Positions 16,290-21,957 of a stretch of 64,000 nt of DNA are shown here, piece after piece. The translations under genes were made by a program, and so were the position numbers. Every line of letters starts with the position of its first letter. Positions within the stretch are counted from its first letter, which is position 1. The stretch is from Rhodopseudomonas palustris. Its GTDB lineage: Bacteria; Pseudomonadota; Alphaproteobacteria; Rhizobiales; Xanthobacteraceae. The notes beneath the pieces are model-generated. The model was not told where the DNA came from and ran no database searches. It worked only from the letters and a program-made list of their open reading frames with translations. The stretch spans positions 1,550,001-1,614,000 of the forward strand of contig NZ_CP058907.1 of NCBI RefSeq assembly GCF_013415845.1. Reading direction: 5' to 3'.

Positions 16290-18602
16290 TCACAGCGGAA
16301 TGCGCGCGTACAGCGCAGTGCCCTTGCCGGGCGCGGATTCGATTTCGAGCGAGCCGCCGACCAGCGACAGCCGCTCACGGATGCCGAGCAAGCCCAGCCG
16401 CCCGGACGGCTGCTTACGGCCGGCGGTGACGAAGCCGCAGCCGTCATCCTCGACGATCATCGTCACCTGGTCGTCGCCGAGCTGCAGAATGACGCTGACA
16501 TGGCGGGCCGAGGCATGGCGCACCACGTTGGTGAGCGCTTCCTGCAGCACGCGGTACAGCGTGGTCTCGACCGGGGACGGCAGCCGGCGCGAGCCGAGCG
16601 TCATGTGCAGGTCGAACTCGATGCTCGACTTCTCGCTCCAGGAGTCGAGCAGGTTCTGGATCGCGGTCTGGATGCCCAGGTCGTCGAGTGCGGTCGGGCG
16701 GATTTCCCAGGCGAGGCGGTTGGCCTGGCGGCCGACGTCGGCGGTCAGGCTCTTCATCTCAGCGATGCGCTGCTGCAATTCGGGATTGTCGCCGGCGGCT
16801 TGGCCGAGCTTGTCGAAGCCGAGCTGCAACAGGGTCAGCGACTGGCCGAGCGTGTCGTGCAGTTCGCGGGCGATCCGTAGGCGTTCGGCTTCCTGATCTT
16901 CGACTGTCCGACGCAGCACCTTCGATAGGTCGGCCTCGACCAGCACCCGCCGCCGCTTCTCTTCCTGCAGCGTCTTGGCGACGTCTTTGGAGCGGCTCAG
17001 GCCGAGCTCGACCTGACGCATCAACTGTTCCTGCAGCAACTGCGCCGACCGTCGCTCGCGGGCGATGCCGTCGATCCGCCGCAGCACGACGTCGAGCAGC
17101 GACTCGCGCAACCGGTGCGCTGCATCGACATCCGTGTCGAGCCACGGCTCGCCATGCAGCCGCACCGATTCTTGCCAGCTCGACGCGCAGCCTTTCGGCG
17201 TTCGGGGCGCGCCTGCATCGACGCCGACCGGCTTGTTGGGCATGCCTGCCCAGGTGACGACGCGGACAACTTCAGGGCGGAACCACAGCACGTAGTTGTG
17301 CGGCGTGTTGGAAAGCGACAGCGCCAGGAGGCCGCTGGCGCAGCCGGCGAACGCCTTGGCGGGCGGATACGCCAGCGCCAGGCAATCGGTGTGGTACACG
17401 CCGTCGTGCGGGACGCCGTGCAACCATCCCATCATCGCGGCCACTTGTGCAGGCCCCGGTGTCGCACCGATTCCGGTGAACTGGCCGTCGATCCACAGAC
17501 CGACGCCGGCGGCCGGGATGAAGTCGAGCAGATTCGGATAGAACCGGATCAGCCCTTCGGCGAGATCCGACTCCTGGCTCATCCGCGTGACCAGCTCTTC
17601 GTGGATGCGCGTGCTGCGCAGCCGGGCGGCGAGCTGATCGGCGGCAAGCCGCGTCTCGAGCTGCAGCGATGCCATCTCGGCGAACAGCGCGCAGGCTTCG
17701 CGCATCCGGTAAGGCAGAAACCGTGGGGTGGCGTGATGGCAGACGATCAGGCCCCACAACTCGCCTTCGACCACTAGCGACAGCGAAAGCGACGCGGCGA
17801 CGCCGAGTTGGGCCAGATACAGCCGGTGTTCGGGGGAGGCGCTGCGGGTCGCGCTGAACGACAGATCAAGCGCGAGGCCGTTGCGCGGACTGTGCGCCGG
17901 CCACAGCGGTGCAGCGGGAGCATGAACGTCGGGCTGCACCCGGATCCGGCTGACGGACCCCGGCTGATTTGAGATGTCCGGTTGCGGATCGCGCAAGCCG
18001 AGGAACGGACTGGTTTCGGGACCGCGCGCTTCGGCGATCACGTCGGCGCTGCCGTCCGGCGCAAAGCGGTACACCATCACCCGGTCGAAGCCGGTCATGC
18101 TGCGCAGCTCGGCGGCCATCGCGTCGCAGAAGCCTTGGAGGTTTGGCGCCGGCCGTGCCCGCCGGATCATCGACTGCACCAGCGCCAGCGAATTTTCCGG
18201 CGCTGGTTCGCGGCGCGGATCGAGCTCTACCACCAAGAGCCCCGAGGCATGATGGACGATGACGTCGATCGGGGTGGCGTCCGGCGCATTCAGTGTGAAG
18301 GCGTGTTGCGGCCGCTCGATCCAGCGATCGGTAGTGGCAAGCGCCTGCAGCCTCGCAATCTGGTCGGACGAAAAGGCCGTGGAGGCTGCGGTGCCCGGCA
18401 ACAACTCCGCCGCCGCGCCGAGCAGCGATGCGGTCGCACCGGCGGCGTGGATGATGGTCAAATCCGCCGGAGCCAGCGCCAACAGAGCGGCGTGGGGCTG
18501 AATCGCACCGGGCAGGACCTCTGTACGCGTCCCACCGGCGAGGGTGATCGGGTCGAAGTCCGAAGCCCTGAGCTCGGCAGAATTGTCAAGGCCAGAGTGC
18601 AT
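16290..18602 (-). CDS. bphP4: Bacteriophytochrome-like histidine kinase without chromophore Cys (RpBphP4 type), 770 aa
   Basis: Domain order: PAS (about 15-120), GAF (about 135-310), PHY (about 325-500), coiled linker, then an HPK7/HisKA_3 dimerisation box with phospho-His in RIARELHDTLGQSL and a HATPase domain (TNVVRHASARHV, VEDDGCGF). The bilin-binding Cys expected about 8 residues before PGAIQPH is absent (Gly in GGTRTEVLPG), and no other Cys lies in the N-terminus. The PASDIP motif is degraded to PQPDIS. It should therefore not bind biliverdin covalently. In strain CGA009 this lineage was reported to have become a redox sensor. ATG at 18602 is used; GTG at 18605 is possible. It is divergent from pucBA. 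Confidence 0.88.
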   Translation of the reverse strand: MHSGLDNSAELRASDFDPITLAGGTRTEVLPGAIQPHAALLALAPADLTIIHAAGATASLLGAAAELLPGTAASTAFSSDQIARLQALATTDRWIERPQHAFTLNAPDATPIDVIVHHASGLLVVELDPRREPAPENSLALVQSMIRRARPAPNLQGFCDAMAAELRSMTGFDRVMVYRFAPDGSADVIAEARGPETSPFLGLRDPQPDISNQPGSVSRIRVQPDVHAPAAPLWPAHSPRNGLALDLSFSATRSASPEHRLYLAQLGVAASLSLSLVVEGELWGLIVCHHATPRFLPYRMREACALFAEMASLQLETRLAADQLAARLRSTRIHEELVTRMSQESDLAEGLIRFYPNLLDFIPAAGVGLWIDGQFTGIGATPGPAQVAAMMGWLHGVPHDGVYHTDCLALAYPPAKAFAGCASGLLALSLSNTPHNYVLWFRPEVVRVVTWAGMPNKPVGVDAGAPRTPKGCASSWQESVRLHGEPWLDTDVDAAHRLRESLLDVVLRRIDGIARERRSAQLLQEQLMRQVELGLSRSKDVAKTLQEEKRRRVLVEADLSKVLRRTVEDQEAERLRIARELHDTLGQSLTLLQLGFDKLGQAAGDNPELQQRIAEMKSLTADVGRQANRLAWEIRPTALDDLGIQTAIQNLLDSWSEKSSIEFDLHMTLGSRRLPSPVETTLYRVLQEALTNVVRHASARHVSVILQLGDDQVTMIVEDDGCGFVTAGRKQPSGRLGLLGIRERLSLVGGSLEIESAPGKGTALYARIPL

Positions 18603-18681
18603 CACTATCTACTCAATTTTCCGTGTCCGGGACTCGTCGGACCGGTTTGAGGATGTCCGGTATGACACGGACAGTCGTCAG

Positions 18682-18725: not shown

Positions 18726-18947
18726 ATCACTCGGATGTGATCAGGACGTGAGTCCTCGTCAGCCGAGGGCTGGAAGCATCCACATCGGTCCGCTCCAACG
18801 CGAGGCGACTCGTCGTTGTCCGGCGGATGGGTGCAGGAGCGAACAGGGAATGCTGAGACCAAGCGAACAAATGTTCGGCGTAGCAGCAATCAACCTACGT
18901 GCAGGTTCAGCACGACACTGATCGTAAGTCTCTCAGGAGGATTTACT

Positions 18948-19103
18948 ATGGCAGACGATCCCAACAAGGTCTGGCCGACCGGTCTGACGATCGCGGAATC
19001 GGAAGAGCTCCACAAGCATGTGATCGACGGCACGCGCATCTTCGGCGCGATCGCCATCGTCGCCCACTTCCTGGCGTATGTTTACTCGCCCTGGCTGCAC
19101 TAA
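18948..19103 (+). CDS. pucB: Light-harvesting 2 beta polypeptide, 51 aa
   Basis: Single-helix LH2 (B800-850) subunit binding bacteriochlorophyll. The polar N-terminus has the usual [16 protein letters not shown] with the conserved His. The helix is [15 protein letters not shown], where the His of AHFLA ligands B850 BChl, and the protein ends SPWLH. AGGAGG lies 7 bases before the ATG. Its location beside a BphP4-type kinase suggests the pucBAe pair of R. palustris. Confidence 0.95.
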
Positions 19104-19115
19104 GGAGTACGTAAG

Positions 19116-19295
19116 ATGAATCAAGGTCGTATTTGGACTGTTGTGAAGCCGACCGTTGGTCTTCCGCTCCTGCTCGGCAGCGTGACCGTGATCGCGATCC
19201 TGGTGCACTTCGCTGTTCTCAGCAACACCACCTGGTTCTCGAAGTACTGGAACGGCAAGGCCGCGGCGATCGAGAGCTCGGTCTCCATCGGCTAA
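19116..19295 (+). CDS. pucA: Light-harvesting 2 alpha polypeptide, 59 aa
   Basis: Partner of PucB, opening [20 protein letters not shown]. The transmembrane helix contains the BChl ligand His in [18 protein letters not shown]. The aromatic residues after it, where residues tuning B850 absorption lie, are FSKYW. TAAGGAG precedes the ATG by 9 bases. It follows pucB after 12 bases, and expression should be co-controlled from the PpsR operators upstream. Confidence 0.95.
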
Positions 19296-19298
19296 TTC

Positions 19299-19348
19299 AG
19301 CTTCTTTCGAAGCTGTCGTGGCTGGACCGGGATCCAAGGGTCCCGGTC
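19299..19348 (+). terminator. Two hairpins after pucA (mRNA stabiliser or partial terminator)
   Basis: AGCTTC-tttc-GAAGCT (19299-19314) and GACCGGGA-N8-TCCCGGTC (19325-19348). There is no clear T-run. They probably protect the pucBA message and lower read-through into pucC, as is known for puc operons. Confidence 0.65.
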
Positions 19349-19481: not shown

Positions 19482-20918
19482 ATGAACACAGTCAGCCAAA
19501 AGATGATGAAAGTCTGGTCCTCGCTTGGGCCGCGCTTTCTGCCTTTCGCGGATGCGGCCACGCCGGATCTGCCGTTGTCCCGGTTGCTGCGCCTGTCGCT
19601 TTTTCAGGTCGCGGTCGGCATGTCGCTGGTGCTGCTGGTCGGCACCCTGAACCGGGTGATGATCGTCGAACTCAACGTGCCGGCCTCGATCGTCGGCGTA
19701 ATGGTTTCGTTGCCTTTGATCTTTGCGCCGTTCCGGGCGCTGATCGGCTTCAAATCCGACGTTCATAAATCTGCGCTGGGCTGGCGCCGCGTACCGTTCC
19801 TGTACAAGGGCACGATGGTGCAGTTCGGCGGTCTCGCCATTCTGCCGTTCGCGCTGCTGGTGCTGTCCGGCGGCGGTGACTCGGCGCAGGCCCCCGTCTG
19901 GGTTGGACAAGTTGCGGCCGCCGCGGCATTCCTGCTGATTGGCGCCGGTGTGCACACCACCCAGACCGTCGGCCTCGCGCTCGCGACCGATCTGTCGCCG
20001 CCGGAGTCGCGGCCGAAGGTGGTCGGCCTGATGTACACCATGCTGATGTTCGGCATGATCGCGAGCGCCATCATCTTCGGCGTGCTGCTCGCCGAATTTT
20101 CACCGGGACGCCTCATTCAGGTGATCCAGGGCTCTGCCGTCGTCACCATCGTGCTCAACGGCATCGCGTCCTGGAAGATGGAAGCGCGCCGCCGCGACAA
20201 TCCCAATCAGGTGACCGCACATCCCGAGGCACCGAGCAGTGGTTTCCGCGAATCGTGGGACGCCTTCATTCAAGGTCCGAACGCGATGCGCCGGCTGATC
20301 GCCGTCGGCTTCGGCACCATGGCGTTCAGCATGGAAGACGTGCTGCTCGAACCTTATGGCGGCCAGATCCTGCATCTGAGCGTCGGCGACACCACGAAGC
20401 TCACCGCGGCACTCGCGGTAGGCGGTCTGTTCGGCTTCGGCTACGCCTCGCGCGTACTCAGCCGCGGCGCTGATCCGTTCCGGATGGCGAGCTTCGGTGC
20501 GCTGGTCGGTATTCCGGCATTCCTCGCGGTGATCTTCTCCGCCGACTTGTCGTCGAGTACGGCCTCCGCGTTGGTGTTCGGTTTCGGTACGCTGATGATC
20601 GGCTTCGGTGCCGGTCTGTTCGGCCACGGCACGCTGACCGCGACGATGAACGCGGCGCCGAAGGATCAGGTCGGTCTCGCGCTCGGCGCCTGGGGCGCTG
20701 TGCAGGCTTCGGCCGCCGGTATCGCTATCGCGCTCGGTGGTATTCTTCGCGACGTGGTAACCGCTTATGCGCCGCACGGTTGGGGCGGGGCCGCGGCAGG
20801 TTATCACTTTGTCTATTACCTCGAACTAGTGTTGCTCATTGCCACGCTGGTGACGATGTTCCCTCTGACACGGCGGCGGGAACCGATTCTGATGCAGGGC
20901 CAGTTGCGCGGGTCCTGA
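19482..20918 (+). CDS. pucC: PucC family MFS protein (LH2 assembly factor), 478 aa
   Basis: Member of the BCD (bacteriochlorophyll delivery) family of 12-helix MFS-like proteins needed for LH assembly. Marks seen: LFQVAVGMSLVLLVGTLNRVMIVEL near residue 45, FRALIGFKSD, and SMEDVLLEPYGGQIL, which match the related gene at 63116. Length is usual for PucC. It sits downstream of pucBA after the hairpins and upstream of two repeat-protein genes. Confidence 0.92.
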   Translation: MNTVSQKMMKVWSSLGPRFLPFADAATPDLPLSRLLRLSLFQVAVGMSLVLLVGTLNRVMIVELNVPASIVGVMVSLPLIFAPFRALIGFKSDVHKSALGWRRVPFLYKGTMVQFGGLAILPFALLVLSGGGDSAQAPVWVGQVAAAAAFLLIGAGVHTTQTVGLALATDLSPPESRPKVVGLMYTMLMFGMIASAIIFGVLLAEFSPGRLIQVIQGSAVVTIVLNGIASWKMEARRRDNPNQVTAHPEAPSSGFRESWDAFIQGPNAMRRLIAVGFGTMAFSMEDVLLEPYGGQILHLSVGDTTKLTAALAVGGLFGFGYASRVLSRGADPFRMASFGALVGIPAFLAVIFSADLSSSTASALVFGFGTLMIGFGAGLFGHGTLTATMNAAPKDQVGLALGAWGAVQASAAGIAIALGGILRDVVTAYAPHGWGGAAAGYHFVYYLELVLLIATLVTMFPLTRRREPILMQGQLRGS

Positions 20919-20936: not shown

Positions 20937-21587
20937 ATGACCCACATCATTACCCGCTTGTATGACTCGAGCAGCCGCCTGTCGGCACTCGAGAGCGATT
21001 TGAAGAGCAGTTCCTTCAAATACGCGGTGGTCACGGCCAGCCGTTCTTCCGCCGAAGAAACCGCTGCCGCGCTTCTCAAGGCCGGCGTGTCGCGCGCGGA
21101 AGCCGCGACTCTTGCCGATTATCTCAAGAAGGGTGGCGTCGTCGTCGCAGCGCAGGCCGAGTTCGGCTACGGCGCGAAACTCACCAAGATTCTCGACGGC
21201 TACGGGCCGAACCCGATCAGCCTGAAGTCGTCGTCCTCGTCGCGTGCCGCCGAACAGAGCGATGCCGCGCCGTTCTCGAATTTGATCCACGCGCCGGTGC
21301 TGCTCGAGACCTCCGGCCCGTACAAATCCTATTCCGGTGACTTGCTGCTGGTCGACAGCGACAAGACCTTCTCTGGTACGCCGCTGGTTATCAGCAGCGA
21401 TGGCCCGTATCAGTCGTTCTCCGGAACACCGTTGTTGCTCGACAGCAGCGGCCCATACAAGTCCTTCTCAGGGACTCCTCTGTTGCTGGACACCAGCGGT
21501 CCGTACAAGTCGTACTCGGGCGAACCGCTGTTGATCAACAACTCCACACCCTTCTCCTCCTGGCTGGGCCTGCCAGTGCTACTCTAA
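20937..21587 (+). CDS. Two-domain protein: stress-protein-like head plus seven LH2-gamma-like 16-residue repeats, 216 aa
   Basis: Residues 1-95 look like a small alpha/beta domain resembling YflT/general-stress 17M domains (LLKAGVSRAEAATLADYL followed by KKGGVVVAAQAEFG, then KILDGYGP). This is a resemblance judged by eye. A Ser-rich linker follows (98-110). Residues 112-216 carry seven units of the pattern PYKSFSGTPLLLDSSG, with the Gly/His anchor at 118, 134, 147, 163, 179, 195 and 211. One unit is 3 residues short, and the first and last are degenerate. The repeats match those of the next gene. It starts 18 bases after pucC. I infer a light-harvesting antenna accessory or assembly protein; no described family is known to me. 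Confidence 0.75.
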   Translation: MTHIITRLYDSSSRLSALESDLKSSSFKYAVVTASRSSAEETAAALLKAGVSRAEAATLADYLKKGGVVVAAQAEFGYGAKLTKILDGYGPNPISLKSSSSSRAAEQSDAAPFSNLIHAPVLLETSGPYKSYSGDLLLVDSDKTFSGTPLVISSDGPYQSFSGTPLLLDSSGPYKSFSGTPLLLDTSGPYKSYSGEPLLINNSTPFSSWLGLPVLL

Positions 21588-21602: not shown

Positions 21603-21896
21603 ATGAGCGAAGAATACAAAGGACACTCTGGACATCCGCTGATCCTGAAGCAGGAAGGCGAATACAAGGGCTATTCCGGTGAACCGCTGATCCTGAAGCA
21701 GGAAGGCGAGTACAAGGGTTACTCCGGTACTCCGCTGATCCTCGAGCAGAAGGGCGAGTATCAGAGCTTCTCCGGCACTCCGCTGATCCTGAAGCAGGAA
21801 GGCGAATACCGGGGCTTCTCCGGTGCGCCGCTGATCCTGAAGCAGGACGGCGAGTACAAGTCGTTCTCCGGCTATCCGCTGCTGCTCAACATCTGA
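21603..21896 (+). CDS. Six-repeat protein, probable LH2 gamma subunit, 97 aa
   Basis: Almost the whole protein is six 16-residue units of the form EYKGYSGTPLILKQEG, starting at residue 4, encoded by 48-base tandem repeats (21612-21893). Cryo-EM of R. palustris LH2 (published 2022, from memory) found a gamma polypeptide that runs as an undulating ribbon around six of nine alpha-beta units and binds six extra BChls. Six repeats here, directly in a puc operon, fit that well. The assignment to this gene is inference. AAAGGA precedes the start. It is preceded by a longer paralogue and followed by a terminator. Confidence 0.85.
   Translation: MSEEYKGHSGHPLILKQEGEYKGYSGEPLILKQEGEYKGYSGTPLILEQKGEYQSFSGTPLILKQEGEYRGFSGAPLILKQDGEYKSFSGYPLLLNI
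21612..21893 (+). repeat. Coding tandem repeat, 48-bp period
   Basis: Five full and one slightly short copies of a 48-base unit (gaatacaaagg...ctgatcctgaagcaggaaggc type), inside the gamma-like gene. Third positions vary between copies while the peptide is kept, which shows selection on the protein. Confidence 0.85.
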
Positions 21897-21922: not shown

Positions 21923-21957
21923 CGCCGCGGGCAGTAATGTCCGCGGCGCCGTGCTTT
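21923..21957 (+). terminator. Probable terminator of the puc operon
   Basis: CGCCGCGG (21923-21930) and CCGCGGCG (21941-21948) form a stem with a 10-base loop, followed by ccgtgctttt. It lies 27 bases after the six-repeat gene. Confidence 0.65.

What the first reader, a model, noticed from the sequence alone, without database searches (positions are those of the whole stretch)
20937..21587. Undescribed two-domain protein: globular head plus seven LH2-gamma-like repeats
A 216-residue protein in the puc operon has an alpha/beta head (residues 1-95) and seven 16-residue units (anchors at 118, 134, 147, 163, 179, 195, 211) of the same family as the six-repeat neighbour. Seven units instead of six, plus a head, suggests a related ribbon that wraps a different antenna ring, or an assembly template/ruler for LH2. 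I know of no characterised homologue.
Basis: partly seen in the sequence, partly recalled or inferred. Interest (0 to 1): 0.87.

Follow-up and report, generated by a model that had tools for sequence, protein, structure and literature searches.

The report
Headed antenna-ring ribbon beside pucC
A small undescribed protein gene in a purple bacterium's antenna operon joins a folded head to a chain of short repeats like those of a known chlorophyll-binding belt around the antenna ring; relatives sit among antenna genes of other photosynthetic bacteria, mostly without the chlorophyll-binding residue, which suggests that the belt is older than its pigment-binding use.

Summary
The gene (216 aa; "HR") lies between pucC and the LH2-gamma gene, whose product is identical to the PDB chain. 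HR has a predicted alpha/beta head and seven tail units; only five carry the Ser-Gly that ligates bacteriochlorophyll in gamma. Those five are kept in 59 of 59 aligned homologues; the last unit has Leu in 57 of the 57 rows reaching it, and the first is Ser-less in 51 of 59. Spacing is 16,13,16,16,16,16.

In the window's family all 23 pucC loci found at 74% identity or more have HR next door. Of 80 named pucC loci, 34 hold an HR, 22 of them outside Rhodopseudomonas. There the ligand position is Ser in only 2 of 116 units. The head is a YflT (PF11181) relative. Gamma thus looks like a headless, pigment-binding offshoot of a wider puc-linked family.

Best reading: a cytoplasmic-face LH2 ring-binding protein working with PucC in assembly, in Rhodopseudomonas able to carry up to five BChls. 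Ring binding, pigment binding and the assembly role are inferred. Against it: 45 of 80 pucC loci show no HR nearby, and no experiment on HR was found.

The parts
20937..21587 (+). HR gene (216 aa; 22.6 kDa; by position RPA1494 in CGA009, inferred from RPA1495 being gamma)
20937..21221 (+). head, residues 1-95: YflT-like alpha/beta domain without the Gly-rich insert
   Evidence: AF2 block means 75-90 over residues 1-90; hhalign of the HR family to YflT-type proteins prob 98.3, E 1.4e-14
21222..21269 (+). Ser-rich linker, residues 96-111
   Evidence: sequence; residues 98-109 under pLDDT 50
21270..21305 (+). unit 1 (residues 112-123, PFSNLIHAPVLL), no ligand Ser (Ile117)
21318..21353 (+). unit 2 (128-139), Ser133-Gly
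   Evidence: Ser in 59/59
21357..21392 (+). unit 3 (141-152), Ser146-Gly; 13 residues after unit 2
   Evidence: Ser in 59/59
21405..21440 (+). unit 4 (157-168), Ser162-Gly
   Evidence: Ser in 59/59
21453..21488 (+). unit 5 (173-184), Ser178-Gly
   Evidence: Ser in 59/59
21501..21536 (+). unit 6 (189-200), Ser194-Gly
   Evidence: Ser in 59/59
21549..21584 (+). unit 7 / C-cap (205-216, PFSSWLGLPVLL), no ligand Ser (Leu210)
   Evidence: Leu in 57 of the 57 rows that reach it, of 59
21603..21896 (+). LH2-gamma gene (97 aa, six Ser-Gly units), product identical to PDB 7zcu chain S
19482..20918 (+). pucC (LH2 assembly factor family, PF03209)
18948..19103 (+). pucB (LH2 beta)
   Evidence: scanned within ORF 18816-19100
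19116..19295 (+). pucA (LH2 alpha)
21923..21948 (+). terminator-like hairpin after gamma; a second one lies between pucA and pucC (19325-19348); none found between pucC, HR and gamma
   Evidence: 3 found in the scan, mean 2.2 in shuffles
16290..18605 (-). bacteriophytochrome kinase, divergent from the puc genes

Best explanation
HR is a cytoplasmic protein whose YflT-like head is joined to a ribbon that lies on the cytoplasmic edge of LH2 alpha/beta subunits, as the gamma ribbon does, one unit to each alpha/beta pair. It acts mainly while LH2 is being assembled, together with PucC: the ribbon gathers or caps alpha/beta subunits, and the head docks on PucC or another membrane partner, or keeps the ribbon from staying bound. 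In Rhodopseudomonas five of the seven units gained the Ser ligand, so HR can also carry up to five BChls, which gamma (six units, no head, made from the next gene) may finally replace on the finished ring. Shown here: homology to gamma, kinship of the head to YflT, conservation of five ligand Ser, linkage to puc genes, the wider mostly Ser-less family. Inferred: ring binding, BChl binding, the role in assembly, the order of events, handover to gamma.
For: Tail homologous to gamma, E 1.9e-27. Ligand Ser-Gly of units 2-6 in 59 of 59 homologues. HR beside all 23 pucC loci of 74% identity or more found in 391 genomes of the family; gamma follows in 21 of the 23. In 80 named pucC loci HR lies within 400 bp downstream in 28 and elsewhere in the locus in 6; 22 of these 34 are outside Rhodopseudomonas. 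In class- and phylum-wide surveys the 16 further genomes whose match is not a plain YflT-type protein (judged by eye) all have it beside puc genes, five of them with strongly diverged tails. Of 22 tails outside Rhodopseudomonas, 9 have every unit step at 15-17 residues, and 6 more if steps of 31-32 count as a unit missed. No membrane helix (largest 19-residue hydropathy mean 1.04); PucC termini are proposed as cytoplasmic for Rba. capsulatus (PMC4949548, passage) and gamma sits towards the cytoplasmic side (PMC9618040, abstract and section 6). [quoted passage not shown] A position-matched paralogue, rpa3011, is induced with the LH4 operon in low light in at least 14 of 17 strains (PMC6879726, passages; gene order in L039).
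Against: 45 of 80 pucC loci with at least 800 bp downstream have no HR detected in the locus (one of them, L164, shows an HR start at its edge), so HR is not a general need of LH2 assembly, unless diverged or distant copies were missed. R. palustris LH2 was made in Rba. sphaeroides without the gamma gene (PMC9618040). No experiment on HR was found. AF2 says nothing on the ribbon: tail block means 35-47, and the known ribbon gamma gives a mean of 33. 7 of 22 tails outside Rhodopseudomonas have other steps, from 12 to 59 residues (L139, L141, L147, L149, L155, L179, L199). Absence of HR from published LH2 lists is weak: an earlier MS study of PucD-LH2 reported only the two apoproteins (PMC5783997, passage), though gamma was later found there.
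Confidence: 0.46

Rival explanations
1. HR is a structural accessory subunit: a second, headed gamma that stays on a minor class of LH2/LH4 rings and adds five BChls, with the head projecting into the cytoplasm to space complexes or bind partners.
For: Invariant ligand Ser in 59/59; same gene cluster as gamma; paralogue rpa3011 co-induced with LH4. Published MS lists have missed gamma itself (PMC5783997, passage), so they could miss HR.
Against: The LH2 preparations described show an extra band around 10 kDa and one gamma density; the MS table in PMC9897067 lists gamma but not HR, although there only gel bands of 10 kDa and below were cut, besides MS of whole complexes (passages). Outside Rhodopseudomonas the ligand Ser is found in 2 of 116 units.
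Confidence: 0.27
2. HR is a pigment-handling protein: it takes BChl from synthesis/PucC and loads gamma or the B800 sites, without itself wrapping a ring.
For: pucC neighbour; PucC/LhaA have been assigned to a BChl delivery family (PMC4949548, passage); five conserved ligand Ser.
Against: The Ser are missing in 114 of 116 units of relatives in other pucC loci, so pigment handling by Ser cannot be the family's common task.
Confidence: 0.12
3. HR is a stress-related regulator or membrane organiser: the YflT-type head is the working part and the tail only anchors it to antenna membranes.
For: Head homologous to PF11181 'heat induced stress' proteins.
Against: The tail is the better conserved part inside Rhodopseudomonas (dN 0.009-0.098 against 0.058-0.299 in the head for four pairs), and gamma and gamma-long exist without a head.
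Confidence: 0.1

Closest known systems
LH2-gamma of Rhodopseudomonas palustris (RPA1495; PDB 7ZCU, 7ZDI, 7ZE3, 7ZE8; Qian 2022, PMC9618040)
   Same: Tail units homologous (E 1.9e-27); same Ser-Gly ligand motif in five units; neighbouring gene.
   Different: HR has a YflT-like head, seven units of which two lack the ligand Ser, 22.6 kDa instead of 10.8, and relatives beyond Rhodopseudomonas; the paper reports gamma only from Rhodopseudomonas (passage).
YflT / general stress protein 17M domain (PF11181; the second name is recalled)
   Same: The HR head profile aligns over 97 columns with six proteins from genomes of the window's own family, three of which were scanned and pass the Pfam cut-off.
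   Different: The window protein has no PF11181 match at E 1 or below, lacks the Gly-rich insert and has a ribbon tail.
Rba. capsulatus PucD/PucE (recalled as products of genes downstream of pucC; PucE recalled as a 14 kDa LH2-associated polypeptide)
   Same: pucDE are named with the puc operon in PMC4634722 (passage).
   Different: No named PucD/PucE sequence could be compared here; identity with HR is an untested idea.
LH1 gamma of Blastochloris viridis and gamma-like of Rhodopila globiformis
   Same: Extra polypeptide packing outside an LH ring (PMC10214105, passage).
   Different: There many separate copies per ring (16 and 11), not one repeat ribbon; no sequence comparison was made.

Membership tests
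LH2-gamma | sequence homology to the PDB gamma chain | tested here: met
   E 1.9e-27, 99.6 bits, two stretches
LH2-gamma | Ser-Gly BChl ligand in every unit | tested here: not met
   5 of 7 units; unit 1 Ile, unit 7 Leu
LH2-gamma | small head-less ribbon of six units | tested here: not met
   head of about 95 residues, seven units
LH2-gamma | present in purified LH2 | not testable with these tools
   published passages read here name only gamma as extra polypeptide; an earlier MS study had missed gamma too
LH2-gamma | extended ribbon on the alpha/beta ring | tested here: inconclusive
   AF2 tail block means 35-47; gamma itself 33
YflT domain (PF11181) | Pfam gathering score | tested here: not met
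   no match at E 1 or below for the window protein; 3 of 26 HR-family proteins match, best E 0.023
YflT domain (PF11181) | profile-profile homology over the domain | tested here: met
   hhalign prob 98.3, E 1.4e-14, 97 columns
puc-linked head-plus-ribbon family (defined here) | YflT-like head | tested here: met
puc-linked head-plus-ribbon family (defined here) | tail of tandem PxSSx(L/S)GxPxL units | tested here: met
   7 units; 0.11 per shuffled tail on average
puc-linked head-plus-ribbon family (defined here) | gene beside pucC/pucBA | tested here: met
   18 bp after pucC in the window
PII/PstA-like (ferredoxin-like) fold | clear fold match | tested here: inconclusive

The most novel reading that the evidence does not exclude
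A widespread, unrecognised class of LH2 partner proteins in alpha- and betaproteobacterial phototrophs (gammaproteobacteria rest on one MAG protein without known context): a stress-type head carrying a ribbon whose repeat period matches the pitch of alpha/beta pairs and whose ring binding came before pigment binding. Gamma is a headless descendant in which one change per unit (hydrophobic residue to Ser) turned an assembly belt into an antenna. In some Rhodopseudomonas, head-less genes with eight Ser units plus the Ser-less cap (nine units) could close the belt round a whole nine-fold ring.
Probability: 0.35. Interest if true: 0.88.

Novelty: new variant of a known kind. Interest (0 to 1): 0.72.

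Why it matters
Gamma was reported from Rhodopseudomonas only, and why it reaches only six of nine subunits was left open. Finding its headed relative in pucC loci from Bradyrhizobium to Burkholderiales gives it a likely ancestry, separates ring binding from pigment binding, and points to an untested candidate LH2 assembly partner in strains held under names such as Bradyrhizobium BTAi1, Roseiarcus fermentans and Aestuariivirga litoralis as well as R. palustris. Deleting one gene would test it directly.

Tried and rejected
Chance or low-complexity origin of the repeats: rejected. An order-wide hit of gamma in G392 is a different low-complexity repeat in the reading frames printed; a second weak hit, G705 (E 0.0035), was not looked at. 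NCBIfam hits (beta-lactamase and others) are weak (11) or above E 0.009 (102) and were dropped. Fold search gave no firm fold: Foldseek had no match at E 0.001 or below, and its top row is the gamma chain (E 0.035, TM 0.07), so by sequence rather than shape; VIA-align Z stayed below 8. AF2 as a test of the ribbon: uninformative, as the gamma control shows (mean 33, with short strands of no confidence). HR on plasmids: no match for the window HR or an f74 one; pucC on plasmids was found in 10 records, all under 60% identity. The head tree has 100 columns for 63 rows; its deep forks are open, so where the Rhodopseudomonas HR branch off is not settled. Rba. capsulatus PucD/PucE could not be compared: no named sequence was at hand and the 1989 paper is not held. 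In one search my script cut two gamma genes of L128 at an inner Met; their counts of 4 are not used. In G012 the HR locus is broken at contig ends and HR could not be counted there. For the 59-row alignment four of the 62 homologues (P0040, P0050, P0059, P0061: fragments or odd reading frames) were left out.

Full report
WHAT IS THERE. The ORF at 20937-21587 (+) codes for 216 residues. It starts 18 bp after pucC and is followed 15 bp on by the gene for LH2-gamma, whose 97 residues are identical to PDB 7zcu chain S (locus RPA1495 in PMC9618040, passage). Upstream are pucB, pucA and pucC and a divergent bacteriophytochrome kinase. No terminator-like site was found between pucC, HR and gamma; one follows gamma at 21923-21948 and one lies between pucA and pucC at 19325-19348, in a scan that found 3 sites with a mean of 2.2 in shuffles. 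That pucC, HR and gamma are transcribed together is an inference.

THE REPEATS. The tail matches gamma in the PDB at E 1.9e-27. A unit matrix built on the family finds seven units with spacing 16,13,16,16,16,16; shuffled tails, averaged over the 37 sequences scanned, give 0.11 hits each. In gamma each unit's Ser ligates a BChl (PMC9618040, section 6). In HR that Ser is present at 133, 146, 162, 178 and 194 in 59 of 59 aligned homologues, each followed by Gly. The position is Leu at 210 in 57 of the 57 rows that reach it, and at 117 it is hydrophobic in 51 of 59 and Ser in 8 (the rows are the window protein and 58 of the 62 proteins, four fragments or odd frames left out). So HR is Ser-less cap, five ligand units, Ser-less cap.

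SELECTION. dN/dS of HR against five other Rhodopseudomonas is 0.14-0.33. For the four pairs split by part, the ribbon is the better conserved (dN 0.009-0.098) against the head (0.058-0.299).

LINKAGE IN THE FAMILY. A search of 391 genomes of the window's family with PucC gives 23 loci in 20 genomes at 74% identity or more, and a separate group at 61% or less, which I take for the LhaA type (inference); only the best candidates of each genome were scored. All 23 have HR at the adjoining position. Gamma follows in 21 of 23; the two without it are G150 and G331. G012, a Rhodopseudomonas, could not be counted: its contigs break inside the repeats. Within the genus 15 of 16 genomes have full-length HR.

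BEYOND RHODOPSEUDOMONAS. PucC was used to fetch 80 named loci from genome contigs (88 encoded a relative, the best 80 were kept). HR proteins were sought in them by profile; the weakest two kept, L138 and L179, score 25 and 30 bits with the head. 28 of 80 have HR within 400 bp downstream of pucC, 6 have it elsewhere in the locus (in the two Rhodoblastus loci upstream on the other strand), 45 have at least 800 bp downstream and no HR detected, and 1 is too short. One of the 45, Rhodoblastus acidophilus MO (L164), shows the start of an HR at its edge. Of the 34, 12 are Rhodopseudomonas and 22 are not: Bradyrhizobium BTAi1 and STM 3809, Aestuariivirga, Roseiarcus, Rhodoblastus, and alpha- and betaproteobacterial MAGs. 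PMC3899966 (passage) places BTAi1 LH2 genes beside a bacteriophytochrome, as seen in L133 and L148. A protein search with the 26-row alignment gave 122 proteins at E 1e-5 or below among 7998 candidates scored, 120 of them listed, one named Chromatiaceae; the last two listed carry PF11181.

WIDER SURVEYS. In 385 genomes of the class, 16 match at E 1e-8 or below, the own genome included. Of the 15 others, 10 have an HR-like protein beside pucA/pucB, most with pucC in the locus too, and 5 have YflT-type proteins, judged by eye, with no ribbon and no pucBA or clear pucC beside them (L215 shows a 25% PucC-like stretch). In 398 genomes of the phylum, 8 match: own, G796 again, and six others, all with pucC beside the match; five of these six are of one family, f74, and their tails are strongly diverged.

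THE SER-LESS RIBBON. Outside Rhodopseudomonas the unit reads roughly PxSSxLGLPxL, like the C-cap of the window protein. In the 22 tails scanned there the ligand position is Ser in 2 of 116 units (one each in L139 and L147), Thr in 1, Ala in 1, and Leu, Phe, Trp, Ile, Val or Met in the rest. Every unit step is 15-17 residues in 9 of the 22 tails, and in 6 more if steps of 31-32 count as a unit missed; 7 have other steps, from 12 to 59. Unit counts run from 2 to 10. The simplest reading is that the ribbon is older than its pigment sites and that gamma lost the head; the deep forks of the head tree are open, so this order is inferred, although the 16 Rhodopseudomonas puc HR form one clade (99/98).

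FURTHER FORMS. Head-less genes with eight Ser-Gly units plus the Ser-less cap follow gamma in L128 (1788-2222), L042, L045 and L048, and the metagenome protein P0061 has the same make-up. With one unit per alpha/beta pair, nine units could span a nonamer (inference). A second HR type with no C-cap lies between two pucBA pairs, next to a response regulator and a phytochrome (L039, L052). By gene order it is rpa3011, which PMC6879726 reports as induced with the LH4 operon in low light in at least 14 of 17 strains (passages). The window's own genome gave no match to it beyond HR, gamma and two chance-level hits.

HOW IT MAY WORK. PucC is important though not essential for LH2 assembly (PMC4949548, abstract), with cytoplasmic termini in the proposed topology (passage). 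Gamma sits towards the cytoplasmic side of the ring (PMC9618040, section 6). HR has no membrane helix. I therefore place the head in the cytoplasm and the ribbon on the ring's edge, acting with PucC during assembly. If bound as gamma is, seven units would span seven of nine pairs, so HR and gamma could not both lie fully on one ring; handover or separate rings would follow. On a stable subunit: purified LH2 is described with an extra band around 10 kDa, and an MS table lists gamma but not HR (PMC9897067, passages, where only gel bands of 10 kDa and below were cut, besides MS of whole complexes). Such lists are weak evidence, since an earlier MS study of PucD-LH2 reported only the two apoproteins (PMC5783997, passage). 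Against an obligate template: R. palustris LH2 was made in Rba. sphaeroides without the gamma gene (PMC9618040); HR's absence there is inferred.

NOVELTY. No work on HR appeared in the listings of ten searches of the open-licence PMC library; subscription papers, bioRxiv and supplements were not searched. Gamma is known; HR is a new variant of that ribbon with a new architecture and a wider family. Ring binding, pigment binding and an assembly role are all untested. On checking, I lowered the best explanation from 0.48 to 0.46 and raised the subunit rival from 0.25 to 0.27, because of the MS caveat.

Noticed in passing
L128:1788-2222 (+); L042 near 3579 (-); L045 near 3083 (+); L048 near 288 (+): Head-less 'gamma-long' genes with eight Ser-Gly units plus the Ser-less cap (nine units), after gamma; metagenome protein P0061 has the same make-up.
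   Followed up: partly
L039:4037-4660 (-); L052:4099-4722 (+): Second HR type between two pucBA pairs; by gene order rpa3011, reported as low-light induced with LH4.
   Followed up: partly
L004:1249-1782 (+) (own genome, C1 near 5.2347 Mb): Unlinked paralogue (P0064): short YflT-like head, diverged tail, same C-cap, beside a glycoside-hydrolase-like gene and a PRC-barrel-like gene (names by eye); 35 homologues found, those named are Rhodopseudomonas.
   Followed up: partly
L223 (own genome, C1 near 769304): A further unlinked relative with two units recognisable by eye, one of them Ser-Gly.
   Followed up: no
window 21270-21584 against 20937-21221: Synonymous divergence of the ribbon is far lower than that of the head in the two nearest pairs (dS 0.08 against 0.56-0.70): codon constraint or conversion between repeats.
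   Followed up: no
L139:4954-5568 (+): A Rhodospirillales MAG HR with one Ser-Gly unit (PFKGVSGAPLL) among Ser-less ones: gained alone or transferred.
   Followed up: no
L228, L230 (G1337): Two HR-like genes in tandem after pucC, one of about 345 residues with a different repeat around MANWPIPLISRRKP; possible link to pucDE untested.
   Followed up: no
L048:1-156 and L049:4110-4271 (G012): Contigs of G012 end inside gamma repeats, so draft genomes may miss this locus.
   Followed up: no
L042:4066-4272 (-) (G007): A gamma gene with only four units beside gamma-long.
   Followed up: no
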